NCBI RefSeq assembly: GCF_009727055.1
Contig: NC_052350.1
Location: forward strand, 265,569-329,568
Direction: 5' to 3'
Source of the DNA: Benincasa hispida
Taxonomy: Eukaryota; Streptophyta; Magnoliopsida; Cucurbitales; Cucurbitaceae
DNA: 64,000 nucleotides
The position numbers were made by a program, and so were the translations under genes. The notes beneath the pieces were generated by a model. That model did no database searches. It was not told where the DNA came from and was given only the letters and a program-made list of their open reading frames with translations. Each line of letters opens with the position of its first letter. Positions within the stretch are counted from its first letter, which is position 1. Positions 1 to 56,654 of the stretch are shown in pieces.

Positions 1-1935
1 TCTCCATCATTTCCAGGTTCAAGAATAACTAAATCTTCAGGACGCATCGACATATTTATTATGAATTTTTCAACTGTTATAGTTGTTAATATGTCAACCC
101 AACAAAATCCAATTTCTAAGGTTACCTATAAGATCTAAATATTATATATTTAAATTAGCCCAAATCTAAGATTCATAAAGTATATATTTAAATCAGCCCA
201 AATCTAAGATCCATCAACTATATATTTAAATCAGCCAAAATAAAAAAAAATATATCCATGAATCATACGTTTAATTCAGTCCAAATGCAAACAAAATAAT
301 ATATATATAATGATATGAACCAATCTTTACTTTTTATAAACATATACATATATATTTCTACATTCAACAACGCCAAAAATACATATCATCGAATAGATAT
401 ATAAAAAATAAAGCCAAAGCAAATAAATAACATAATCATCCAGAAAATAGTCCAATAAATCAGCCAACAAAATCTAATTTCTACTAGTTCTAACTACCCA
501 AAATAGCAAACAAATGAGACAAATAATATACATATATTTCTAAGCTTCCAATCCAACAGATAAATCGTAGATCCATAAACTAAACATTAAGTTCAAACTA
601 AATGCAAACAAAATAATATATATATACATATATATATATAATATATAAGATGTTATATATTGAAAAACAACTAAAGAATAATTAACATAGAAGTGGAGCC
701 GGACGAACAAATGGAGACGATTTCGAACAATTTACGAATTTTGGACGGACGAGCAAACTGGAGGAGTTTGGATGCCAACAAGACAGAAAGCATAAAATGA
801 GGAAGATTTTCGGAATTTTGGAGCGGAGAATATGCAACAAAGAAGGCAAAATCGACGGACGGTAGAAAGCTTTCGATTGAAGGCAGGAAAGCTCGACGAG
901 GAAAAAGGGAGCAGGCACGGGATTTAATTGCATGACTCGTGTACCAGGTTACAGCGATTAACCACGATAGCATGATAAATACCCTATTTTTGGGAGTATT
1001 CTTCCTCTACCTATTTTTGTCATTATAGTATTAAAAAAATATTATTTTAAAAAAAAAAATCTTTTCCTCGTTTAAAGTTCATTTTTTGATGTTGTGGCAT
1101 CGGATCTTGAAACGATGGCCATTTGTTAGAGTCTTGAGTATTTGACTAATTTCGTTATTTCGAATCTGATTTTTGAGTCTACCTGAAGGTAGTGAGTTTG
1201 TTGAATGGCGAGATTGTGGTTTTCTTTGTTTTATTTATTTATTTTTGCTTTTTTATGAGGCCAAAGAGAGGGGTCGAGGTGGGGATCATTTTTTTCTCCC
1301 ATGCTCATGGGGTTCCCACAGTGGTCTGATGAATGAAATTATTATCATAGGGTGTTTTGTTTTGACTTTGCTTCCTAAAAAAAATTAAATAATTTCGTAA
1401 ATATATTTAATTAACATGCAGGCTTTTCAGGCGTTTTAAATAAATTAAAATTTTCTTATTGTTAATATTGTGTTCAAGTTATGTTTATACATGTGTGTTT
1501 AAATATTCACTTGGTGAATTGTCCGATGTCATACACAATACTAAGAGACATATAAGGACAATAAATACTATTCCAATTTAGTTAGATTCTTTGATGTTTG
1601 ATTTGACAAATATTAGAAACAACTAAGGAAAAGTAAAGTTTATTCTTTTTCTCTCTTTTAAGTTAAAAAAAAAAATGGAAGTGTGATTCAAATTTCTAAC
1701 TCCTGTGTTCACATTTTATGCCATATGCTCACATTCGACAAAAGAAAATATAGCTATTGGATAATCATAATAGCATTATATTATAGCTCAATTTACATAA
1801 ACAATAGAAACTTTGGAAGCAAAAATTCACCGAACACCAAAAATCGTCGGCAACCATTACAAAAAGTTATATTGTTGAATTTTCCCTAAAAAAGAAAAAC
1901 AAAAACAAAAAACCCATAAAAAGAAAAAAAATAAA
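1..1935. other. AT-rich intergenic left flank
   Basis: This stretch lies outside the large retrotransposon nest. It is AT-rich, with many short A and TA runs. Open frames at 671-973 (minus), 1173-1388 and 1683-1889 (plus) are short and resemble nothing I recognise; I treat them as chance. A somewhat less AT-rich patch at 690-960 shows no gene structure I can support. No RNA gene was seen. Confidence 0.6.
136..245. repeat. Short tandem repeat, ~45-50 bp unit
   Basis: The phrase TATATTTAAATYAGCC followed by CAAATCTAAGATYCAT recurs at about 145-180 and 185-220, with a third partial copy to about 235. A related phrase (CAAATGCAAACAAAATAATA) appears at about 285-304 and again near 600-620. Local tandem duplication in non-coding DNA is the simplest reading. 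Confidence 0.55.
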
Positions 1936-2378
1936 TCAATAATGCAACACATAAACATCGTAGTTGGATTGAAGTAATGAGTTTTTGCCAAAGCATAGCC
2001 ACTAGCAAATCGGAACTTGCCACTTCCTTCGACGACTGGCATCTCCCTCATGGCGTCGGAGATGAGATTCCGACCAAGCACAATGAAGAAGCTGCCGTTG
2101 TATTTACCATTAGTGAAGGCAAAGTTCATAGCCATCAAAAGCCCAATTTGATCTTCGGCCGAGGCCGCATATAATCCTTGAGATCGGCCCACCAATTGTG
2201 AGTCCAATTCAGGGTCCACGGTCAAAGGATTGTCAAAGATGTTGACTTCATCGAACACGGTGGCATTGTTGAGCGGTGGGAGAAATACAATGCTAGAGGG
2301 TTTAGCTCCACTGTGTCGTGCCAATAAAGATGAAAATGGGTAAGTTGTTGTTTGTTGAATTATAAAGATTTTGGCCAC
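1936..2378 (-). pseudogene. Dirigent-family protein, frameshifted pseudogene
   Basis: Dirigent proteins are small secreted beta-barrel proteins that steer stereoselective coupling of phenoxy radicals in lignan and lignin metabolism. The longest frame reads 173 residues from 2378. Its core matches the family: NATVFDEVNIFDNPLTV, SQLVGRSQGLYAAS and VLGRNLISDAMREMPVVEGS, then FRFASGYALAKTHYFNPTT. The usual ends sit in other frames. LTHFHLYWHDT lies upstream, about 2313-2346, shifted against the core. YDVYVLHY plus a TGA stop at 1936-1938 follows the core in yet another frame, with a few codons before it missing. A stop lies just upstream of LTHFH, and no signal peptide is seen. So there are at least two frame breaks plus loss of the N-terminus. 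Family assignment is firm; whether an upstream exon once existed is unknown. Confidence 0.82.
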
Positions 2379-3549
2379 ATCCTATCCATTATATATGCTA
2401 TATCATCTCAGCGCTCTAAATAGCCATAACGTCCCAAACAGCTCCTAAATGATAACAAAAGTAAACACAAAATTGTGATGATTTTGGTTGGCTTGACCGT
2501 GGCCTTTTTTACTTTTGGAGAGTTGGTTTGATTTACTTTGTGAGTAAAGAACTTTGGAATGAAAAGGGCCATGTATTATAAGCAAAATGAGTGCAAAATA
2601 ATATTAACCGCATTTGGCTAATTATAGAAGTAAATTTTAATGGCATTTTTTTAAAAATTGAATCTTTGCCGTTGAATAGGCTCGATGGTTATGGATGAGG
2701 TCATATATTGTTGCACTCAATATATATATATATATATATATAAGAAAATATGATCTTGGTTGGCTCGGAAAATTTACTTTTGGATAAGGTCATTGTCTGC
2801 TCGTGCTTCCCAAACTTGGTTTAGATAACTTCGATCTCAAGACTTTCCTATGTTCTTGGGCCATTTGTGCATGTTAGGCCTAAAATACGTGGGTCGTGGG
2901 CCAAGCTTTTGAGACCACCCTTCACTAGCAACATTATATAAATGATTGTAAGTTGAGAAATTGGAAATGTATATCTATAATGGGATGTCAAAATGAGACC
3001 ATAGCCATAGTTAATGTATTAAACATTATATCCTTAATCTCATATGTTTGTGAATTCTCACTTTCACTTATGGTTTAACTAAAAAAATTAACAAAAAATA
3101 ATAATGATGATGAATCTTTAAGTTATTTATTAATCTTTTTTTCTTAACATACGTGTTATGTTCGCAAAGTATATATATTTGCTAATTCCATAAAGGATAA
3201 ATATAACTTAGTATAAGTGAAATGTGGTAAAAGGAAAATTTAAGTTTCTACCACGAATTATTGTAAGGTGATCAATTTTTATTAACTTTCCATTACAACA
3301 AATTGAATATTAAATTTGGACATGTGTTGTAATTTTTATCCTTTATGGTCTAAAATTGAACATTACCGAAAATTGACAATATAAATGAGAAATCAATAGT
3401 AAAAACGAAAACATATAGTTTTTAAAAAAGTATCTATGTCATTCTGTTTTTCTTTCCTAGAATATTACATCATATTTATAGGTCGGGAGTTCTAACCCTA
3501 TGACCTCTCCTAAAAGTAGAGATGCATTAATTGTTAAGCTATACATTAG
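2379..3549. other. Intergenic region up to the retrotransposon nest
   Basis: AT-rich non-coding DNA with no supportable gene. It contains a perfect TA microsatellite at 2721-2742. The last five bases, ATTAG at 3545-3549, form the left target duplication of the large Sirevirus-type element. Confidence 0.6.
2721..2742. repeat. (TA)11 microsatellite
   Basis: Eleven uninterrupted TA units. Simple-sequence repeat in intergenic DNA; likely length-polymorphic. Confidence 0.9.
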
Positions 3550-15693: not shown

Positions 15694-17813
15694 TGAAGGA
15701 ACTCTTACACAAGAGTACCTATGAGTGGAAGCAGATCTTTCTGATTTCCTTGTGACAGAATTTTCACACATACATTCTAACATACATATATGCATTGAAA
15801 ACATTAATTACTGGCATTCTTTAAAAGATAAAAACAAAAGAACAAGAGAACGTACCAGTTGAAGACTTTCTTCACAAGAACTCGGTCCAACTGTGAACGA
15901 ACTCCTCTCGTTCCTACTTGTCCAGCAAGCAATCACCTAGCAGTACCACGGTCGTCTTCACGAATAGCAGCGCACAAACAACAAGCGAACGGGGACGACA
16001 CCACCACTCGAAGCCCTCAATATTCTCGGAGTGAGAATCCAAAGGGTGGGCTTTGATGTAATTAGTAGAGGGGAGGAGGAAAAACAATCGTGTACTACAA
16101 ACAAGCAAGTGGGAGATAGAGAAGACTATCATATAGTCGGGTGCTTGATCGTCTAGGACGGGGTACACGATCGTGTAGTTAATGCTAAGCGATCACCTAT
16201 CAAAAGGTAAGCGATTGTTTAGTTATGCTCGGCGCGCTAAGAAATCGTCTAGCAAAGGTAAGCAATCGTTTAGGCAACGCGGGTGTGTGATCGTTTAGTA
16301 GGCAGACATTATCGTATAGGCTCTCAACACTAAGCGATATAAGACTTTCACACCGTGAGCGATTTTTCGTGTCCTTTTCCTATCACTTTCAAAATGAAAA
16401 CTATTTTCATTTTATTCTTCAGTTACTAGAACTGAATTCAACTTCCCACTTTCACACGAATTCGGAGAAAACTTCAACCAATTATCCCATAACCGCCCAA
16501 TTAATAAAATAATGAATATAATCATATTACATCTTAACCTATAGTTTGATATCATATATCAACTATAGTATTTTCTCCTCTACTTGATATAAATCATATT
16601 TATATCCAATTTCCTCCAAAATAATGCATCTCATACATTTAGTCCATCATATCATATATAATTAATCAGTTCAATTATATCATATATAATCAAACTCGCT
16701 ATTGTCAGTTTGAACATTTTAAATTGACCCAAAAACGGATTCTCAACTTGTATCCAAGATATCAAAAGGTATGGACTTATGGCTCGAAGCTCCAACGGTA
16801 CGTGAATAGCTTACTAAATTCTTTAGCCACGAGATCCACCATCCGTTAACTGTCAGGCATTCCACTAAAGATCGACAACTGAACTCTTCTTACCAAAAAT
16901 ATATTTCTGTGTCCATCGGATATAACCAATCATGAGTACGATAACCCTTCAGAGATGCTCGTAAGTACAGTTGGGCCAATTTACCGTTTTCTTCTGTAGT
17001 TACATCTCACTCCTTAAGTACCCCTGATCCCTCTAATGAATAATACAACATAGTCTAACTATGTGTGAACAACTCTTAGGCCATGAGAAGGTGTGTGCCG
17101 CTATATTGTTCAAGCCCTGGAATCAACCCTTAAGAGAGCTATCTATCTACTTGCCACTACTTCGAGGAAGAAGTGAATTCCATCTTGTGTAGTTGAGTTC
17201 CCAACGCCCAAATCAGATGAATCCCCAAAGTGGTAGGTTTGAGTCGGTGGACTGGCCACTCGCACCCATGCAAATCAAAGGACCGCCCTCAATGGCAAGA
17301 GTTCCCAACTCACTCAGGATTGAGGTCATGTTACCTATGGTCATCCTAGTGAAGTGAAGTCTCTGTCATGAATGGTGTTATATAACGAGACGTTAACACT
17401 TCGTGGCCAAGTCTTATACAAACTCTTTGTATATGATGCCCTCGCTCGCATGTCCCTTACACGAATGATCAGGATCAGATCATCTGTGACAAGTCACAAC
17501 ATTTCTAACTATTCCACAAAGCTGGCCGCATCTGTAGCGTTACCAGGATAAGGTTTCCCTCTTACATCCATATACTACAGACCATTTTGGTTATTACTTA
17601 AGACATGATCCACTTGTATGTCACCACATACATGCTTAAGTTACATAAAGACAACCAGGAATTTTAGTTTATTGGTTTGTGGTAAAGAAAATAAAACATT
17701 CAGATGAGTAAAATCAAGAAGTGAAGTAAATATCATATATTATACATCACAAGCATTCATACAAACTGTTTACAAACTACAGAACACGAGACTTTAGGGC
17801 ATCAACCCCAACA
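15694..17813 (-). mobile_element. Family-A copia solo LTR 'A7'
   Basis: 2120 bp, beginning TGAAGGAACTCTTACAC and ending ATCAACCCCAACA, with a perfect duplication AAAAA (15689-15693, 17814-17818). No internal coding region. Contains GATCGTTTAG-type words at 16140-16310. It interrupts the Sirevirus RT between GELFYFLEF and SQSKYAKN. Confidence 0.88.
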
Positions 17814-26097: not shown

Positions 26098-27515
26098 GTG
26101 GAGAATGATTATTCGACCTCGATAATAGATCCAGGCACCACTAACCACGTTTGTTGTTCATTTCAGAGAATTGATTCCTGGCGATTGGTAAATAACGATG
26201 CATGTTAGAACTAGGCACGCCATCTCAACAAAGGCACTGAGAGGACTTTGTCTTACTTTACAGAAATCATTTATTTTGTTAGAAAATGTTTATGTAGTTC
26301 CTGATCTAAAAAGGAACTTAATTTCTATAAAGTGTTTAATTGAACAAAGTTATTATATACATTTTTCTATACTTTATAAAGATGGTGTAGAGATTTGTTC
26401 TAAGTTGGAAGGTAAACTTTATGTGCTAAGGCTGTTAGCAACAAAGACCTTCCTAAATATTGAACTGTTTAAAACTGCGGTAACTCAAAATAAAAGACAA
26501 AAAAATTCTCTTAAAGAAAATGTCCATCTTTGGCACTTAAGGTTAGGACACATAAATCTCAATAGAATCGAGAAATTGGTTAAGAATGTACTTCTAAGTA
26601 AGTTAGAAAAAAATTCTCTACCGGTATGTGAGTCATGCCTTGAAAGCAAAATGATTAAGAGATCTTTTACTGGAAAATGTCATAGAGCCAAAAAGCTCTT
26701 AGAACTTGTACATTCGGACCTCTGTGGTCCTATGAATGTTAAAGCAAGAGTAGGTCTTGAATATGTCATCACCTTTACTGATGATTATTCAAGATATAGG
26801 TATGTTTATTTAACATGAAGTTTGAAGCCCTTGAAAAGTTCAAGGTGTACAAGGTTGAAGTTGAAAATGCATTAAGTAAAACAATTAAAATATTTTTATC
26901 TGATCAAGATGAATAGTATATGGATTTGAAATTCCAAGACTATTTGATAGAATAACCCAACTTTTAGCACCTGGTACACCTCAGCAGAATGGTGTATCAG
27001 AAAGAAGAAATTGAACATTGTTGGACATTGTTCGATTTATGATTCTTTACTCTTCCTTACCTGACTCATTTTAGGGTTATGTAGTACAGATTGCAGCCTA
27101 TATTTTGAACTGTGTTCCATCCAAGAGTGTTACTGGAATACCTTTAGAGTTATGGAGTGGTCGTAAAGGTAGCTTTTGACATTTCAAGATCCGAGGATGC
27201 CCAACACATGTGCTTGGAGCTAATCTTAAGAAGTTGGAACCTCGTTCAAAATTATTCTTATTTGTAGGTTACCCCAAAGGAAGGGAAGGTAGTTACTTCT
27301 ACGATCCTAAATATAATAAAGTGTTTGTATCGAACGCTACATTTTTAGAAGAGGATCACATAAGGGAGCATAGACCACATAGTAAGATAATATTAACTGA
27401 GTTTTCCAGTGAACCTACTAAACCTTCAACAAGAATTATTGAAGAGCCTAGCACCTCAACAAGAGTTGTTAAAGTTGGTTCATCTAGTAGGTCACATCCA
27501 CCTCAATTATTGTGA
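26098..27515 (+). pseudogene. Copia protease and integrase, degraded (family A element)
   Basis: The protease active-site region reads IIDPGTTNHVC (DPG at 26128-26136). The frame 26198-26818 contains NVYVVPDLKRNLISI, the pre-integrase box HLWHLRLGHINLNRIEKL, the cysteine pair CESC and the integrase core HSDLCGPMNVKARVGLEYV with TDDYSRYRYVY. It breaks at 26818. Later pieces include PGTPQQNGVSERR in a shifted frame (about 26970-27010) and the C-terminal KLEPRSKLFLFVGYPKG (27210-27515). Integrase inserts the cDNA into the genome; this copy cannot. Confidence 0.8.
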
Positions 27516-29150
27516 GAGCCTCGATATAGTTGGAGGGTTGGGAAGCTTCCTATTCGTTATATGAGTTTCTCAGAAACACTAACTATCATATCTGATGGCG
27601 ACGTTGAGGATCAATTGTCTTACAAGTAGGTAATGGATGATGTTTACAAAGATGAATGGATCAAAGCTATGGATCTCAAAATGGAGTCTATGTACTTCAA
27701 TTCGGATTGGGATATTTTAGATAACCTGATGGGGTAAAATCTATAGGTTGCAAATGGATCTACAAGAGGAAACAGGGTGATGATGGGAAGGTACTAACCT
27801 TCAATGCTAGGCTTATGGCAAAGGGTTATACCCAGGATGAGGGAGTCGACTATAAGGAGACTTTCTCACATGTTGCCATGTTAAAGTCTATCCGAATACT
27901 TCTGTCCATTACCTCATGTTATGACTATGAGATTTTGCAAATGGACGTTAAGACTACTTTTTTGGTTGACAATATTGAGGAGACTATCTATATGCAGCAA
28001 CCTGAGGGATTCATAACCCAAGGTCAAGAACAAAATATTTACAAGCTTAATCGGTCCATTTATGGATTGAAACAAGTTTCTCGATCTTAGAATATAAGAT
28101 TTGATACTGCGATCAAATCTTATGGCTTTGATCAAAATATTGATGAGCCTTGTGTATTCAAGAAAATCATCAATAGTTTAGTAGCTTTTTTTGTGTTGTA
28201 TGTAGATGATATCCTACTCATTGAGAATGATGTAGGTTTACTGACTGAAAATAAACATTGGTTGGCGACCCAATTCCAAATGAAAGATTTAGGAGATGTG
28301 CAGTCTGTTCTGGACATTTAAATCTTTAGAGATTGATAAAACAAAACATTGGCATTGTCTCAAGTATCATATAAAGATGTTTGTCAAGTATTCGATGCAA
28401 AACTCCAAGAGAGGCTTGCTATATTTCAAGCATGGAGTTTTTTTGTCTAAAGAACAGTGTCCTAAGACACCTAAGAAGTTGAGGAAATGAGATGGATTCC
28501 CTATGCATCAGCTATTGGTAGCTTGATGTATGCGATGTTATTTGTCAGACCTGACATCTGCTATGCAGTGGGGATAGTCAGTAGATATCGGTAAAATCCA
28601 AGATTAGATCATTGGAGTGCCTTTAAGCTATTCTCAAGTATCTTCGGAGAACAGAGGCTTACATGCTCGTATATGGGTCTAAGGATTTAATTCTTACAGG
28701 ATACACTGGCTTTGATTTTCAGATCGATAGTGATTTTAGGAAATCCACTTCAAGATCAGTGTTCACTCTTAACGAAGGGGGTTGTAGTATGAAGAAGCAC
28801 CAAACAAGGGTTCATTACTGACTCCACTATGGGGGCAGAGTATGTAGCAACTTGTGAAGCTGCCGAGGAGGTTGTCTGGCTCAGGAAATTCTTAACTGAT
28901 CTAGAAGTAGTTCCAGACATGTCAAATCCCATCATCCTTTATTGTGATAATGGTGGTGTTGTGGCTAATTTTAAGAAGCCCAGAAGTCACAAACATAGGA
29001 AGCACATAGAGCGGGAGTATCACCTAACACGAGATATTGTGCATCAGCACACAATGTTGCTGATCTGTTTACAAAGGCCCTCACAACTAAGGTGTTTGAG
29101 TGTCACCTACAGAGTATGGACCTATGGGACATGCCACATTTAGTCTAGGG
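27516..29150 (+). pseudogene. Copia RT and RNase H, degraded (family A element)
   Basis: RT words: MAKGYTQDEGVDYKETFSHV (from 27815), LQMDVKTTFLVDNIEE, YMQQPEGFI, LNRSIYGLKQVSRS, then the catalytic box YVDDILL (YVDD at 28199-28210) in another stretch. RNase H words: MGAEYVATCEAAEEVVWLRKF (from 28829), ILYCDNGGVVANFKKPRSHK and HIEREYHLTRDIV. Multiple stops and shifts separate the pieces. Word choice suggests the Tork/TNT1-like lineage. Confidence 0.82.
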
Positions 29151-29260: not shown

Positions 29261-29270
29261 AAGTGGGAGA
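29261..29270 (+). other. Polypurine tract of the family-A copia element
   Basis: AAGTGGGAGA directly precedes the 3' LTR, the usual place for the RNase-resistant primer of plus-strand synthesis. Confidence 0.75.
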
Positions 29271-29410
29271 TTATTGAGGTTGATGTCCTAAACCTCGTGA
29301 GTCCCGTAGTTTGTAATTGTAATGTAGAAATAATTTATTTATTTAATAAAGACATTTAGTAGCGTTAACACAGAAAACCAATAAACTAAGATTCAAGGTT
29401 ATCTTCTGTA

Positions 29411-29546
29411 ACTTAAACATGTATATGGAGACATACAAGAAGATCATGTTCAAGAGAACCTAAACAGTTTGTGGTAGATGGATAAGGTTGGGTACCTTAT
29501 CCTGGTGACACTAAGAATACGACCCACTTTGTAGATGTTACAACTG
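29411..29546 (+). repeat. 136-bp segment duplicated exactly at 30156-30291
   Basis: Every base matches 30156-30291 on reading the two side by side. This copy continues naturally into the LTR on both sides; the other is bounded by synthetic adapter on both sides. This is therefore the genuine locus. Confidence 0.9.
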
Positions 29547-29949
29547 TTGTAAAGTGTTACAAATGATTTGATCCAGATCATTCATGTGAAGACATGTAAA
29601 CGGGGATGTTCTATACAAAGAGTTTATAGAAGATCGGACCACGAAATAACTAGTATCATTATATAACATTGTTGATACATAATGATGAACCTGGCTCTAA
29701 TACCAATTGAAGGAAATTGGAACTGAGATTTCCATGAGCAGCGGAACAAGATTATTCTAAATCACAATCATAACTGAACATAACATTTACAGTCGACTTC
29801 AAACAAACGGTTATACAATTCATACAGAAATTACAACATGAAAATAGAAATGCACAAAGAGCAAACTGTACGAACAATCAAAGAAGCGTCTCCATGCTCC
29901 GTTGCGCGATCGCTCAAACAACAACGACCACAAACGCTTAATCTACACG

Positions 29950-29987
29950 CTGTCTCTTATACACATCTAGATGTGTATAAGAGACAG
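29950..29987. other. Synthetic Tn5 mosaic-end junction (adapter artefact), copy 1
   Basis: Two 19-bp Tn5 mosaic ends head to head: CTGTCTCTTATACACATCT (29950-29968) and its reverse complement AGATGTGTATAAGAGACAG (29969-29987). This 38-bp palindrome is the circularisation junction of transposase-based mate-pair libraries. It is not plant DNA. Confidence 0.97.
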
Positions 29988-30117
29988 GTTTTAATCTGAT
30001 GTGCACTCTGATCGATCACAGCAACCATGAGCGCTTAATCTACACGACCGCAACACCGCATGAACACTTCACGCTTGTCCTCAACGATTGCCTCGATGAA
30101 CTCCTCAGCAATAGCAC
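29988..30117. other. 130-bp segment between adapter copies
   Basis: Bounded on both sides by the adapter palindrome. It shares CGCTTAATCTACACG (30032-30046) with the bases just left of the first adapter (29935-29949), so it may carry the true continuation of that locus (ACCGCAACACCG). Order and orientation are uncertain. Confidence 0.7.
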
Positions 30118-30155
30118 CTGTCTCTTATACACATCTAGATGTGTATAAGAGACAG
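30118..30155. other. Synthetic Tn5 mosaic-end junction (adapter artefact), copy 2
   Basis: Same 38-bp palindrome as at 29950, with no mismatch. It joins the 130-bp segment to an exact copy of 29411-29546. Confidence 0.97.
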
Positions 30156-30291
30156 ACTTAAACATGTATATGGAGACATACAAGAAGATCATGTTCAAGA
30201 GAACCTAAACAGTTTGTGGTAGATGGATAAGGTTGGGTACCTTATCCTGGTGACACTAAGAATACGACCCACTTTGTAGATGTTACAACTG
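30156..30291 (+). repeat. Exact 136-bp copy of 29411-29546 between adapters
   Basis: Identical to 29411-29546 and bounded by adapter palindromes at both ends. A library fragment built into the assembly explains this better than a genomic duplication. Confidence 0.92.
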
Positions 30292-30329
30292 CTGTCTCTT
30301 ATACACATCTAGATGTGTATAAGAGACAG
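30292..30329. other. Synthetic Tn5 mosaic-end junction (adapter artefact), copy 3
   Basis: Third perfect copy of the 38-bp palindrome. Minus-strand LTR sequence resumes at 30330 (AACCCTTCACAGATCGCTCG near 30360). Confidence 0.97.
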
Positions 30330-31591
30330 GTGTCCATCTTAACCAATCAGCAGTGCGACAACCCTTCACAGATCGCTCGTAAGTACAGCTGGGTCAATAA
30401 CCATTATGCCCCTATAGTTACATCTGTCTCCTTAAGTACCACTGATCCCTCTAATAAACATAAGTCATAATCCTACTATGACTGAGTTTTCTCTTCCAAA
30501 GAGAAGTTGTGGCCACTATGTTCAAGCCTCAGAATCAACACTTAAAGGAGAAATCTCTCTATTTATCCTTGCTTCGGGAAAGAAGTGAATTCCATATTGT
30601 GGATTGAGTTCCCAGCTTCCAGATCAGACAAGTCCCCAAAAAGGTAGGTATGTTGAGTTGACAATCTGGCCATTCTCATCCATACTAATCAAAGGACCGC
30701 CCTCAAAGGCAGGAGTTCCCAAAACACTCAGGATTGAGGTCGTGTCACCTATGATCGTTTAGGTGAGATGTAAGTCTCTAGTATCAACGGTGTTATATAC
30801 AGAGTTTGGTCATCTCGTGGTCCAGGTCTTATACAAACTCTTTGTATAGGACACTATCGCTCCACGTCCGCACATGAATGGTCAGGATCTACCATCTGTA
30901 GTAGTTTACAACACTTGTAAACCTCTACAAAGCGGGCCGTATCCATAGTGTCACAAGGATCAGATATCCCACCTTAATCCTTATACTACAGACCTATTTA
31001 GGTTATCACTTAAGGCATGATCCATTTGTATATCACATATACATGCTTAAGTTCACATAAGATAACCAAGGAGCTTTGTTTATTGGATATGAATAAATGC
31101 CAGAATTAAATAACACTTATTTTATTCATTGAACAATGTATATCCTTACAAATTAACGAGATTCCGGGAGAATTAGGACACCAATCCCAACAAGAAGAGA
31201 CTTACATTTCACCAGGATGACTATAGGTGACTTGACTTGAATCCTGAGTGAGTTGTGAACTTCTGCCTATGAAGGCGATCCTTTGATCTACATGGGTGAG
31301 AGGAGCTAGTGTCGCTGACTCAATATGCTTACCATTTTAAGGATTCGTCTAATAGGAGAGTTCGGAATATAGCTACACAAGAAGGAATTCACTCCTTTTA
31401 TAAAGTCAAGAGTAAATAGAGAAATTGCTCTCTTAAGAACCGATTTCAAGACTTGAACAATGTGACACCACACCCTCTCCTGGTTCGAGAGGGGTTTGGT
31501 CATAGTTAGACTACGACTTATTGTTCTTTAAAGGAATCAATGGTACTTAAGGAGTTAGATGTAACTACAAGGGAAAAAAGGTAATTTTTGC

Positions 31592-51175: not shown

Positions 51176-52350
51176 TCAGTTGGCTTCACGTAGTACGAGA
51201 GATGACTTTTGACGTTCTATGTCATCTTCAAAGTATGGCTTCACTCTTTGGCCATTTACTTTGAACGTGTTGGTGCCATTCTCTTGCGTTAATTCTACTG
51301 CTCCGTGGGGAAAGATTGTTTTGATAATGAATGGTCCTGACCACCTTGACTTTAACTTTCCTGGGAACAAACGCAACCGTGAATTGAACAATAAAACTTT
51401 TTGGCCAACAACAAACTCTTTCTTACTAATGCATTGGTCATGCCAACTTTTTTTCTTCTCCTTATAGAGCTTGTTGTTCTCGTATGCGTTCAATCGTCAC
51501 TCCTCAAGCTCATTGAGCTGAAGTTTGTGTTGATCGCCCGCGGCATCCAAGTTCAAATTTAGCTTCTTTACTGCCCAAAAAGCTTTGTGCTCCAACTCTA
51601 GGGGTATGACAAGCTTTTCCAAATACTAAAGAGTATGGAGACATACCTATGGGGGTCTTGTAGGCAGTCCTGTAGGCCCAGAGCGCTTCATCCAACCTCT
51701 GTGCCCAGTCTTTCTGTGATGCGTTGACAACTTTTTCCAATATTGATTTTATTTCCCGATTTGATACCTCAGCTTGATCGTTCGTTTGTGGGTGGTATGC
51801 AGTAGCGATCTTGTGCCTAACATTATATTTGGCAAGTAATTTAGAAATGATGCGATTAATGAAATGCGTACCTTCATCACTTATCAGAGCTATTGGTGTT
51901 CCAAAGCGTGTGAAAATGTTCCTAGTAAGAAACTTAGAAACAGTCGACACATCATTTCTGGCACAAGCTACTGCTTCTACCCACTTTATTGCAAGCAGGA
52001 TATATTGTTGACCGCAGGACAAGGGAAAAGTTCCCATAAAATCAATGCCCCAGACATCAAATAATTCAACTTCAAGAATATTGTTCAAGGGCATTGCGTC
52101 CCTTGATGAGATATTCCCGGTGCGTTGGCAGAGGTCACACTTACGAACATACTCCCTCGCATCGTTGAATAGGGTGGGCCAGAAGTATCCGCTTTGAAGA
52201 ATCTTCGCAGCGGTTCTTTGCCCTCCAAAATGCCCTCCGTAAGGAGAGTCATGACACTCAGCCAAGATGCGTTGTGTCTCTTCCTCCGGAACGCATCGAC
52301 GCATGATGAAGTCTGGGCCTTGTTTATAGAGAAATGGTTCATCCCAAAAA
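51176..52350 (-). pseudogene. Athila integrase
   Basis: Minus strand. N-terminal HHCC zinc motif: [17 protein letters not shown] through [15 protein letters not shown]. The catalytic core has [10 protein letters not shown] (first D), [11 protein letters not shown] (second D) and [11 protein letters not shown] (E), the D,D-35-E set. [15 protein letters not shown] is well preserved. The main frame ends at 51510; after a short break a C-terminal piece, 51493-51176, has KKSWHDQCISKKEFVVGQKV, WSGPFIIKTIFPHG and GQRVKPYFEDD, the usual gypsy integrase tail. Only one or two lesions are visible here. Confidence 0.88.
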
Positions 52351-53929
52351 TAAAATTTGATGTCATGTACTAACCATTTCTTTTGCTGAGAGTTGAAGTT
52401 CCCAGAGAATTGCTTGGTAGTTAAGTAATTAACTATGTTTGCGTACCAAGGTTCCCTGCCTTCAATTCTGAACAAGCTTTCATCAAGAAATGAATCTTTG
52501 ATTTCATTTTCTTGATCTTGTATTTCCTGATTTTCCAATCTGGACAGGTGGTCAGCCATCTGATTCTCCGTCCCCTTTCTATCCTGAATATCAATGTCAA
52601 ATTCTTGTAATAGCAACACCCATCTTATTAATCTTGGTTTCGCATCCTTTTTACTCATCAGGAACTTTATGGCTGAGTGATCTATATAGATGGTTGCTGA
52701 CGCACCAACTAAATAAGATCTAAACTTCTCGATGCTAAACACTACAGCCAACATTTTTTTTTTCCGTGGTTGTGTAGTGTTCCTGAGAGTCGTTCAGTGT
52801 CTTGGATGCGTAAGAGATGGGATGTATCAAATTTCCTTTCTTCTGCCCCAGCATGGTACCTACTGCAATATCACTCGGTCGCACATGAGAATAAAACGTT
52901 GCGTCCAATCTGGTGCTATTAGTACCAGAGTTGTAGTCAACGCATATTTCAATGTTTCAAACGCGTCACAGCAGTCCTCATTGAAATCGTAGGGCCAGTT
53001 CGCTTCTAATAATGCGCTCAGAGGTCGTGCAATTTGAGAAAATCCTCTAACGAACCTTCGGTAGAAGCCAACATGTCCTAGAAAACTTCGTAGAGCTTTT
53101 ACATTTGATGGTGGTGGAAGTTTAGCTATGACATCTATCTTGGCTTCATCAACTTCCAACCCAGCTTTAGATACTTTGTGGCCCAAAACTATTCCCTCAG
53201 TCACCATAAAGTGACATTTTTCCCAATTTAGCACAAGGTTTGTTGCCTCGCATCTAGCGAGGACAGCCTCTAAGTTATCTAAGCATGATTGGAATGAGTC
53301 TCCAAAGATTGAAAAATCATCCATGAAAACTTCAACGGTCTTTTCCAAGAAGTCAGAGAAAATTTCCATCATACACCTTTGGAATGTTCTAGGTGCGTTG
53401 CATAGCCCAAAGGGCATGCGCTGAACGCGAATGTTCCAAAGGGATAGGTGAATGTTGTCTTTTCCTGATCTTCTGGGTCAATCAAAATCTGGTTATAACC
53501 AGAGTATCCATCAAGGAAATAATAAAATTCTTTTCCAGCCAGTCTATTAAGCATCTGGTCAATGAAAGGAAGGGGGAAGTGGTCCTTCTTAGTTGCCGCG
53601 TTGAGCTTCCTATAGTCCATACAGATGCGCCAGCTTGTGACAGTCCTCGAAGGAATGAGTTCATTATTGCTATTGACTATCATAGTTATTCCCCCTTTCT
53701 TAGGAACGCATTGGACTGGGCTTACCTAGCTGCTGTCGGATATAGGAGGGATGACTCCTGTGTCCAGCCATTTTAAGATTTCTTTCTTGACCACCTCCTT
53801 CATTATGGGGTTCAGCCTTCTTTGAGGCTCAATCGATCCCGACTTCCCTTCTTCCAACCTGATTTTATGCATGCAATAAGATGGGCTAATGCCACGAATA
53901 TCCGCTAGCGTCCAACCTATTGCACGCAT
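52351..53929 (-). pseudogene. Athila reverse transcriptase and RNase H
   Basis: Minus strand: 53929-53726 (RRLNPIMKEVVKKEILKWLD, GVIPPISDS), 53683-53369 (RICMDYRKLNAATKKDHFP, YYFLDGYSGYNQI), then 53417-52860 in another frame with MPFGLCNAPRTFQRCM and the catalytic VFMDDFSIFG (FMDD at 53316-53327), HFMVTEGIVLGHKVSKAG and ALRSFLGHVGFYRRF. A stop at 52860 separates RNase H, in the same frame ([39 protein letters not shown]). The lesions are one frameshift near 53400 and one or two stops. Confidence 0.9.
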
Positions 53930-53943
53930 GTGCTTTGCAGCAT

Positions 53944-54885
53944 CTACAAAAGAGAATGTTCGTTAGGTTCAATAAGATTTGCGGAAATAATTACAGGTAA
54001 GGTTTTATTTGTTCCAAGTAAGGCGTGTTTAAGGTGACTAGGTAACGGTTTCAACACAAGTTCTGGTGGTTCCTCTAGTGATGGACGCGTTGGTTTCGTC
54101 TGTCGCTCACTCAGACTTGGCGGCTCTGGTTCTTTCATGTTCTCCTCCAACGCAAGGACCTCACATACTTGGGTCACTTCTTCTTCAGGAAACCCTATTC
54201 TATTTAGTTGACATTCTTCACTATCCGGGAACTTTAATGCGTTTAACACCTTAAACTTCACCTCTTGATTGTCTACGCACATAGTTAATTTTCCTTTATG
54301 CACGTCTATTAAAACTTTCCCAATGGCTAGAAAGGGGCGTCCAAGGATAATTGGTACATCTCTATCTGCTTCATAGTCCAAGATGATAAAATCCACTGGG
54401 AATATGAAGTTGTCAACTTTTACCAGAACGTCTTCAATCTTTCCTTCAGGGTACTTGATTGTTCTGTCAACGAGTTGAAGAGTAACAGAAGTGGGTTGTG
54501 CTTCACCAATTCCCAATTTCTTGAAGATTAAGAGTGGCATGAGATTAATACTTGCTCCCAAATCACACGACGCATGTCCCACCTCCAACCCTCCGATCGA
54601 GCACGGAACTGTAAAGCTCTCAGGGTCTTTTTGTTTCTTGGGTAGTCTACTGCTTACTAACGCATTGCACTCCTGCGTTAGTGCAATTACCTCTGTCTCG
54701 CTGACTCTCCTTTTCTTCGTCAAAATATCTTTCAAAAATTTGACATATTTTGGCATTTGCTCCAAGGCTTCTACAAGTGGAATATTGATATGCATTTGCC
54801 TCAGGAGTTCAAGAAAATGCTTAAATTGTTGTTCATCATTCTTCTTCATCAAACGTCTAGGGAATGGTGCGTTCAGCGACACCAC
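53944..54885 (-). pseudogene. Athila aspartic protease region of gag-pol
   Basis: Open for 313 residues from 54885. The active-site motif DLGASINLMP lies at residues 108-117, in place of the classical D-S/T-G-A. It is followed by VDFIILDYEADRDVPIILGR at about residues 160-180, the second conserved strand and the ILGRPFL box. Upstream are charged helices (FKHFLELLRQMHINIPLVEA). It cleaves the element polyprotein in related elements. Neighbouring frames join it to gag and RT, so it is part of one polyprotein now split by stops. Confidence 0.85.
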
Positions 54886-55184
54886 AGGTTTTCCCGTGTT
54901 AGACGTGTTTCGCTCTTAATGGCTTGTTGTTTCAGGCATTCTTTCTTCTTGATCTTCTAATGCCATTGAATGTGTGTTGCGTTCTTTTGAAGGATTGTTG
55001 CTTCTTGGATTCATGGTTCTTTCTTCAAGAGCTTTTCCACTTCGCAATGTCACCGCGTGACATTGCTTCTTTCCATTCTGTTCCCAGGAGTTGCAGTGTT
55101 GCTAGGCAAAACTCCAGGCTGCCTATTCTTCAATTCACTTGCTATCTGCCCCACCTGTATCTCCAGGTTTTTGATAGACGACGC

Positions 55185-56352
55185 CTAGCTTTTCAGCAAC
55201 GCGTCATTCTGGGCGATGTACTCCTTTAATAGATTTTCAAGCGGAGATCCTGAGCTCGACGCCTGACCTTCTCTATTAAAGAATTGTTGGTGTGGCTGAT
55301 GCATTGGTTGGAATGCAGGCAGCGGTCCTTGCCTTTGCTGTTGGTTCGCCCCTAGTGGTGCTCCTGTTGATTTCCTATCCAAGAAAAATTTGTATGGTTC
55401 CTCCATCCAGGGTTATATGTATTTGAAAATGGGTTATTTTTTATGAAGCATACTGATTGCGGGTTTTATGGGCAATCAGCGTAGGAATGGGGATCTCCAC
55501 AGCCCACACAGCTAACCATGGGTTGCTCGAATGCTTCTACCTGATTCACCTTCTGCTGATTTGATGCGTTCTCTAGTGATATGTTCTACAAAAGGTTGGT
55601 CATAGTAGCCACTTATGCATAGAGTGTGGCTATTGCGTTGGAATCGATAGATTAACATTCTGAGATCTCTTCTTCCTGTCAGTTCTTGTGTCATACGTGT
55701 CATCCACCCATTCCATGTTGTGCTTAGCAATGCGGTCTAATATTTCCTTAGCTTCAGTGTAAGATTTATCCATAATTCCACCAGTTGTAGCTGTGTCGGC
55801 TACCATCTGTGATGCTCTATTCAATCCACCATAAAAAGTCTCTATCTAGATAGTTAGTAGTAATCCATGGTTCGTGCAATTTTTGACCAATCCTTTAAAA
55901 TGCTCCCATGCGGCGCTTAAGGTTTCAGCTTCTTCTTGCTCAAAGTTCATGATTTCTCGACGCCTTCTTGCGTCGGTGGTGGGTGGGAAGTATTTTTGCA
56001 TAAATTTCTCCACCAACTTCTCCAAGGTTGTGATTTCTCCAGGCTCCAGTGAGTTTACCCATTGCTTTACGTTATCACGCAAAGAATAGGGGAACAGAGA
56101 TAGCCTGATTGCTTCTGGGGTGATTCCAAGAATCACAAAAGAGTTACATGTTTCCAGGAAACGTTTCATGTGGGCGTGAGGATCTTCTCCACGACTACCC
56201 CCAAATTGTCCAGCAGTTTGGAGCATTTGCAGCCTCACGGATTTCATCTCGAATCTTGTCCTGTCTGGCGTTGGGTATATGATTCCTGGTGAGAAATCAT
56301 ACAATACAGGAGATGAATACTCCCTCATGGGACGCGTACTACTGTTCGCCAT
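55185..56352 (-). pseudogene. Athila gag with CCHC knuckle
   Basis: The start at 56352 gives MANSSTRPMREYSSP. The retrotransposon gag domain lies at residues 40-165: GEDPHAHMKRFLETCNSF, IRLSLFPYSLRDNVKQWVN, TTLEKLVEKFMQKYFPP. The frame stops at 55846; pieces 55824-55630 (KEILDRIAKHNMEW) and 55406-55185 (glutamine- and proline-rich) continue it. A CCHC knuckle CVGCGDPHSYADC lies at 55472-55510, followed by a stop and NPQSVCFIKN. Confidence 0.85.
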
Positions 56353-56654
56353 TAGGATCGGATTTTACACGGCATGAGCTAGTTGTTGAGCTAAGTTCTG
56401 ATTTTCCTGGTTGTCTGCCATTTCTTGTTGCCTGTTTTGTTGTCTGAGAAGTTGTTGCCTCAACCTTCAACAACGATTAGATCGATTTCTTCGTTGGAAG
56501 GTTCTTTCAATCTCGGGGTTGTATATAAGTTCAGGAGTGCTCTCACTACTCATAAACGTTCACAAGCTTAGGCTTAGCTCGTAATACTCCCTCGGTTGAA
56601 GTGTTCCTACAAAAGATACAAGCAAAATTTCTGGTTAGTTTTGTTTCTGAATCC

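What the first reader, a model, noticed from the sequence alone, without database searches (positions are those of the whole stretch)
29950..30329. Three embedded Tn5 mosaic-end junction palindromes: the assembly is artefactual here
A 38-bp perfect palindrome made of two 19-bp Tn5 mosaic ends occurs three times (29950-29987, 30118-30155, 30292-30329) with no mismatches, in a region where real repeats are worn. That exact head-to-head unit is the junction adapter of transposase mate-pair libraries. A real Tn5 insertion would show transposon or payload DNA between outward ends and a 9-bp target duplication. Sequence order from about 29680 to 30330 should not be trusted.
Basis: partly seen in the sequence, partly recalled or inferred. 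Interest (0 to 1): 0.9.

Follow-up and report, generated by a model that had tools for sequence, protein, structure and literature searches.

The report
Sequencing adapters left in plant genome
Three perfect copies of a man-made DNA-library adapter sit in this chromosome sequence (likely a plant's), and 9,991 exact copies sit in the whole assembly; they are most likely leftovers of mate-pair sequencing that the assembler built in, so this is likely an error and not biology.

Summary
Confirmed artefact. The 38-bp palindrome (two 19-bp Tn5 mosaic ends, back to back) is present exactly at 29950-29987, 30118-30155 and 30292-30329. It is printed as a biotinylated circularisation ("ring") adapter (PMC7357533). 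The window's 913-Mb assembly holds 9,991 exact copies, 10,978 with up to 3 mismatches, and none of the reversed-pattern control. The same 38-mer occurs in scaffolds of unrelated bacteria. Adapter flanks in this assembly carry the Tn5 target bias learnt from other organisms' junctions (z 8.5; the six window flanks P about 0.004). No junction of the 24 sampled, nor the 3 in the window, has a full 9-bp target duplication. Segment 30156-30291 is an exact 136/136 copy of 29411-29546, and relatives of the right-hand repeat continue past the point where junction 3 cuts it off. The artefact lies in the terminal-repeat region of a Ty1/copia element. Best mechanism (inferred): mate-pair reads with untrimmed junction adapter were built into the sequence. 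In the clearest cases a short tagmented fragment had closed on itself, giving fragment-adapter-fragment.

The parts
29950..29987 (.). Junction 1: 38-bp palindrome, two Tn5 mosaic ends back to back
   Evidence: exact match; no 9-bp duplication of the flanks (3 of 9 positions agree)
30118..30155 (.). Junction 2: same 38-bp palindrome
   Evidence: exact match; flanks agree at 2 of 9 positions
30292..30329 (.). Junction 3: same 38-bp palindrome
   Evidence: exact match; flanks agree at 2 of 9 positions; homology of the right side to two repeat relatives starts at 30330
29988..30117 (+). Segment between junctions 1 and 2 (130 bp), placement not trusted; 30018-30046 resembles 29921-29949 (24 of 29 bases)
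30156..30291 (+). Segment between junctions 2 and 3 (136 bp), likely false duplicate of 29411-29546
   Evidence: 136 of 136 identical; the other copies found in the window are at most 83.1% alike
29411..29546 (+). Source copy of the duplicated segment, inside the terminal-repeat region of the Ty1/copia element
30330..31126 (+). Repeat copy (antisense to the copia terminal region) cut off at its left end by junction 3
   Evidence: alignments to 16909-17675 and 38076-37312 begin exactly at 30330, while those two relatives align with each other for about 800 bp further; alignments to other copies begin at 30340 to 30361

Best explanation
The three palindromes are exact copies of a synthetic mate-pair junction adapter (two Tn5 mosaic ends) that were likely left untrimmed in sequencing reads and built into the assembly, so they are most likely not part of the organism's genome. 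Inferred steps: transposase cut the DNA and added one mosaic end to each fragment end. Fragments were then circularised end to end, which creates the 38-bp palindrome between the right and the left end of a fragment. Junction reads were not clipped, and the assembler or gap filler walked through them inside a multi-copy retrotransposon repeat. Where a short fragment had closed on itself, the result is fragment-adapter-fragment; that arrangement is seen in complete form at 3 of 24 sampled junctions of this assembly. In the window, junction 2 fits a fragment running from 29411 to 30117, about 669 bases without junction 1, whose start reappears as 30156-30291. That fragment assignment is inference, and junctions 1 and 3 are not resolved.
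For: Exact 38-mers, 3 of 3. The 38-mer is printed as a biotin-labelled ring adapter for circularised libraries (PMC7357533, passages seen). 9,991 exact copies in the 912,946,352-base assembly, reversed-pattern control 0; 10,978 with up to 3 mismatches, so 91% are perfect. Tn5 target bias: 43 distinct flanks from 20 own-assembly loci score z 8.5 above random 9-mers on a matrix trained on 290 flanks from other organisms; the six window flanks give P 0.0037 (local control 0.0044). Flank duplicated in direct orientation within the locus: 10 of 24 own junctions against 0.43 at random places, 61 of 154 in other organisms against 10.5. Complete fragment-adapter-fragment: 3 of 24 own and 14 of 147 bacterial junctions. 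Segment 30156-30291 is a 136/136 duplicate. Homology to two relatives breaks at 30330.
Against: No reads were available. The 24 own junctions are the first listed on contig C1, out of 9,991, not a random sample. Gap proximity is weak: 30 of 154 junctions in other organisms lie within 300 bp of an N run against a control mean of 21.1 (maximum 28), only 3 of 20 own loci show any N run and the window has none, so 'gap filling' as the exact step is not shown. 14 of 24 own junctions have no duplicated flank nearby. Four of the six window flanks are individually unremarkable for the Tn5 bias. Junction 3's left flank is copied upstream, not downstream, so it does not fit a simple self-closed fragment. 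One of 143 junctions in other organisms has a 9 of 9 flank match.
Confidence: 0.98

Rival explanations
1. The 38-mer comes from shear-and-ligate circularised libraries (the same ring adapter ligated to sonicated DNA), not from transposase cutting.
For: PMC7357533 uses exactly this 38-mer on ultrasound-sheared DNA.
Against: Flanks of 24 own-assembly junctions carry the Tn5 target bias (43 distinct flanks, z 8.5), and the six window flanks taken together are biased too.
Confidence: 0.04
2. Another Tn5 library type (for example hairpin or long-read tagmentation) left back-to-back mosaic ends.
For: Such methods exist; LILAP uses a 19-bp mosaic end in a hairpin adapter (PMC11226609, passages seen). 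One own locus (L149) shows four junctions at an exact 167-bp period, as a read going round a small circle would give.
Against: The LILAP hairpin carries the PacBio adapter next to the mosaic end, so a bare 38-bp palindrome is not expected from it.
Confidence: 0.04
3. Real integrations of a Tn5-derived synthetic transposon, or a natural repeat of the organism.
For: None beyond the presence of the mosaic ends.
Against: No payload between the ends; 0 of 3 window and 0 of 24 own junctions have a full 9-bp duplication. 91% of copies within 3 mismatches are perfect, while the repeat alignments of this window are mostly 66-86% identical. The same sequence occurs in unrelated bacteria.
Confidence: 0.003

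Closest known systems
Mate-pair junction (ring) adapter, 38 bp, as printed in PMC7357533; junction-adapter trimming with NxTrim described in PMC6298255
   Same: Identical 38 bases to the printed ring adapter; Tn5-type flanks; fragment-adapter-fragment structures
   Different: PMC7357533 used it on sonicated DNA; the passages of PMC6298255 do not print the sequence. Here it sits in an assembly instead of in reads.
Same adapter left in draft bacterial assemblies
   Same: Exact 38-mer, several junctions close together (17 of 127 loci hold more than one), direct duplication of flanks (61 of 154 junctions)
   Different: Hosts are mostly bacteria; here a 913-Mb assembly, likely of a plant, with about one copy per 91 kb

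Membership tests
Tn5 mate-pair junction adapter artefact | Exact 38-bp mosaic-end palindrome | tested here: met
   3 of 3 in the window; sequence printed as adapter
Tn5 mate-pair junction adapter artefact | Flanks show Tn5 cutting bias | tested here: met
   z 8.5 on 43 own-assembly flanks; six window flanks together P 0.0037, two of six stand out singly
Tn5 mate-pair junction adapter artefact | Flanks are fragment ends: right flank copied upstream or left flank copied downstream | tested here: met
   9 of 24 own junctions in the expected sense (3 of the 9 in the tandem array L149), 4 in the opposite sense (wrong-sense copies listed only in L149), 3 complete. In the window met for junction 2, not met for junction 3's left flank, not visible for junction 1
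Tn5 mate-pair junction adapter artefact | Absent from independent PCR-free or long reads | not testable with these tools
   no reads held
Real Tn5 insertion | 9-bp target duplication and DNA between outward ends | tested here: not met
   0 of 3 in the window, 0 of 24 in own loci, best 7 of 9; no payload
Native repeat family of the organism | Copies diverged like other repeats of the genome | tested here: not met
   9,991 perfect of 10,978 within 3 mismatches

The most novel reading that the evidence does not exclude
About ten thousand untrimmed junction adapters mark false joins or false tandem duplications throughout a chromosome-scale 913-Mb plant reference, so its repeat annotation and fine gene order carry a systematic, mappable error.
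Probability: 0.85. Interest if true: 0.25.

Novelty: not a real feature. Interest (0 to 1): 0.1.

Why it matters
Anyone using this assembly would otherwise read 30156-30291 as a recent duplication and 29950-30329 as a palindromic element. A one-line screen with the 38-mer marks 9,991 such places to mask or to re-assemble from trimmed reads. Biologically it is ordinary.

Tried and rejected
Natural Tn5 ends (IS50 outer and inner end) and other adapter strings (Nextera read adapters, TruSeq, P5/P7, loxP linker, nanopore, PacBio), all typed from recall, were sought as exact matches in the window and not found. Real Tn5 insertion was rejected for lack of duplication and payload. Rfam gave no match at gathering scores in the window. 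Proximity of junctions to N runs was tested and is weak. Whether segment 29988-30117 has its true place elsewhere in the assembly could not be learnt: the machine did not answer. The same holds for segment 29690-29949 and for a count of the single 19-bp end. I looked for a paper reporting this contamination in seven searches; of these I saw listings only and recognised none, since the species is not identified here. I saw passages of four papers: PMC6298255, PMC11226609, PMC7357533 and PMC5066668. That the organism is a plant is inferred from the dirigent-like protein, the copia and Ty3-like elements and the genome size.

Full report
Observation. The 19-bp mosaic end is expected 0.05 times in the window with up to 3 mismatches and is found 6 times. 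Apart from the three, the closest 38-mer in the window has 13 mismatches.

What the unit is. The same 38 letters are printed as a 'biotin labeled ring adapter' for circularising fragments in PMC7357533 (passages seen); it was the only paper of the library holding the full string. PMC6298255 (passages seen) describes tagmentation with biotinylated junction adapters and trimming of the junction adapter with NxTrim; the passages do not print the sequence. That the mosaic end is an engineered hybrid of the two IS50 ends is recalled; neither natural end, typed from recall, is in the window.

The whole assembly. The window is contig C2, 265569-329568, of an assembly of 912,946,352 bases in 1,791 contigs. 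It holds 9,991 exact copies of the 38-mer, and 0 of the same pattern read backwards. With up to 3 mismatches the count is 10,978, so 91% are perfect; there is about one perfect copy per 91 kb. In 20 stretches of 9.5 kb taken around the first listed places, the 26 matches within 14 mismatches are 24 perfect, one with 1 and one with 2 mismatches. The repeat alignments of the window are mostly 66-86% identical.

Other organisms. Viral contigs gave 7 stretches, plasmid records 5 of 72,556, and complete E. coli genomes 0 of 20,395 records. I know of no shared biology that would explain this spread.

How the flanks look. From 129 loci with the 38-mer (the 120, the 7 and two plasmid stretches) I took 290 distinct flanks and compared their first 9 bases. 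They show a strong position-dependent bias, close to the recalled Tn5 target consensus GNTYWRANC (mean score 3.62 against 2.52, z 15.5). A matrix trained on these flanks scores 43 distinct flanks from the window assembly's 20 loci far above random 9-mers of the same loci (z 8.5). The six flanks in the window also score above random taken together, P 0.0037, or 0.0044 against local sequence. Individually only two of the six stand out: GTTTTAATC at 0.0008 and GTGCTATTG at 0.029; the other four lie between 0.22 and 0.42. This points to ends cut by Tn5 transposase. No full 9-bp duplication flanks the adapters: the window's three agree at 3, 2 and 2 of 9 positions, and none of the 24 own junctions reaches 9, best 7. 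In other organisms 1 of 143 does. This is what separate fragment ends give, and not an insertion.

How the assembly was damaged. A 25-base flank is repeated in direct orientation in the same stretch at 10 of 24 own junctions, against a mean of 0.43 (maximum 3) at random places; inverted, 0 of 24. In other organisms it is 61 of 154, against 10.5 (maximum 18), and inverted 2 of 154, which random places also reach at most. The sense of the copies is that of fragment ends: the right flank recurs upstream, or the left flank downstream, within 3 kb at 9 of 24 own junctions, with 4 in the opposite sense (the two counts may overlap). One search lists wrong-sense copies only in the tandem array L149, which also supplies 3 of the 9. 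For 147 bacterial junctions it is 43 against 24. Complete fragment-adapter-fragment arrangements occur at 3 of 24 own junctions, with fragments of 190, 109 and 129 bp, and at 14 of 147 bacterial junctions. L149 has four adapters at an exact 167-bp period, which is a 129-bp fragment plus 38. Of 20 spacers between neighbouring adapters in other organisms' loci, 8 consist wholly of 20-mers found elsewhere in the locus in direct orientation and 4 have none. The simplest account is small tagmented fragments that closed on themselves, read through and built in. That is inference from these structures.

In the window. Segment 30156-30291 is identical at 136 of 136 bases to 29411-29546, whereas the other copies found in the window are at most 83.1% alike. 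Its position, to the right of junction 2 with the source upstream, fits one fragment from 29411 to 30117, about 669 bases without junction 1. Junction 3's left flank does not fit a simple self-closed fragment. Segment 29988-30117 has no full copy in the window; its bases 30018-30046 match 29921-29949 at 24 of 29 positions, the last 15 identical and ending exactly at junction 1. To the right, alignments of 30330 onward to two relatives (16909-17675 and 38076-37312) begin at 30330, the first base after junction 3, although those relatives align with each other for about 800 bp further. Alignments to further copies begin slightly inside, at 30340 to 30361. The adapter thus appears to cut a repeat.

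Setting. A Ty1/copia GAG-pre-integrase domain lies in the frame 26192-26815 on the + strand. The stretch 26524-29043 aligns at 69.5% with a record that encodes a copia-type protein with GAG-pre-integrase, integrase and RVT_2 domains (L128). The terminal region of this family follows at 29269-29678 and resumes at 31196-31588. What lies between, 29679-31195, includes an opposite-facing copy of the same repeat family (30330-31126) and the adapter junctions. Whether the opposite-facing copy is a real nested insertion or also a misjoin cannot be told here. The window holds more than nine places alike to this repeat, which makes it a likely place for short-read assembly to break.

Limits. No reads are held, the species and library records are unknown, the own-genome sample is 24 of 9,991 junctions from one end of one contig, and the true positions of the displaced segments could not be searched. 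Proximity to N runs is only weakly above control in other organisms (30 of 154 against 21.1), only 3 of 20 own stretches show an N run and the window has none, so whether the contig builder or a gap filler made the joins is open.

Verdict. The feature is a library adapter artefact, one of about ten thousand in this assembly, and has no biological novelty.

Noticed in passing
L128 (NZ_CP115454.1, Kitasatospora cathayae 'plasmid', 4,649 bp); also NZ_CP115302.1, Streptomyces camelliae 'plasmid', 5,159 bp (search row only): Both match the window's Ty1/copia region; L128 aligns to 26524-29043 at 69.5% over 2,558 columns, has 39% GC and encodes a copia-type protein with GAG-pre-integrase, integrase and RVT_2 domains. 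They look like plant retrotransposon contamination deposited as bacterial plasmids.
   Followed up: partly
NZ_CP032357.1, NZ_MT039157.1, NZ_KY978628.1, NZ_MF589339.1, NZ_MF918372.1: Five plasmid records carry the exact 38-bp adapter, NZ_MT039157.1 at its very end; the two inspected (NZ_KY978628.1, NZ_MT039157.1) are titled complete sequence.
   Followed up: partly
L149 4452-4990: Four adapters at an exact 167-bp period with 129-bp spacers that repeat each other exactly, as if a small circle had been read or walked round several times.
   Followed up: partly
L041, L044, L075, L082, L085, L088, L089 and others: Bacterial scaffolds with two to four adapters close together; of 20 spacers tested, 8 are wholly made of 20-mers found elsewhere in the locus and 4 have none.
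   Followed up: partly
window 29269-29678 and 31196-31588: One copia terminal-region copy is split at matching points by 1.5 kb (29679-31195) holding an opposite-facing copy of the same family and a motif at 29694 that resembles a primer-binding site (recalled); nested insertion or misjoin.
   Followed up: partly
window 1857-2381 (-): Dirigent-like protein gene or fragment (Pfam PF03018, E 1.6e-36).
   Followed up: no
window 51510-56364 (-): Retrotransposon with gag, reverse transcriptase, RNase H and integrase matches and a protease match below its curated cut-off, in separate frames; Ty3-like order is my reading.
   Followed up: no
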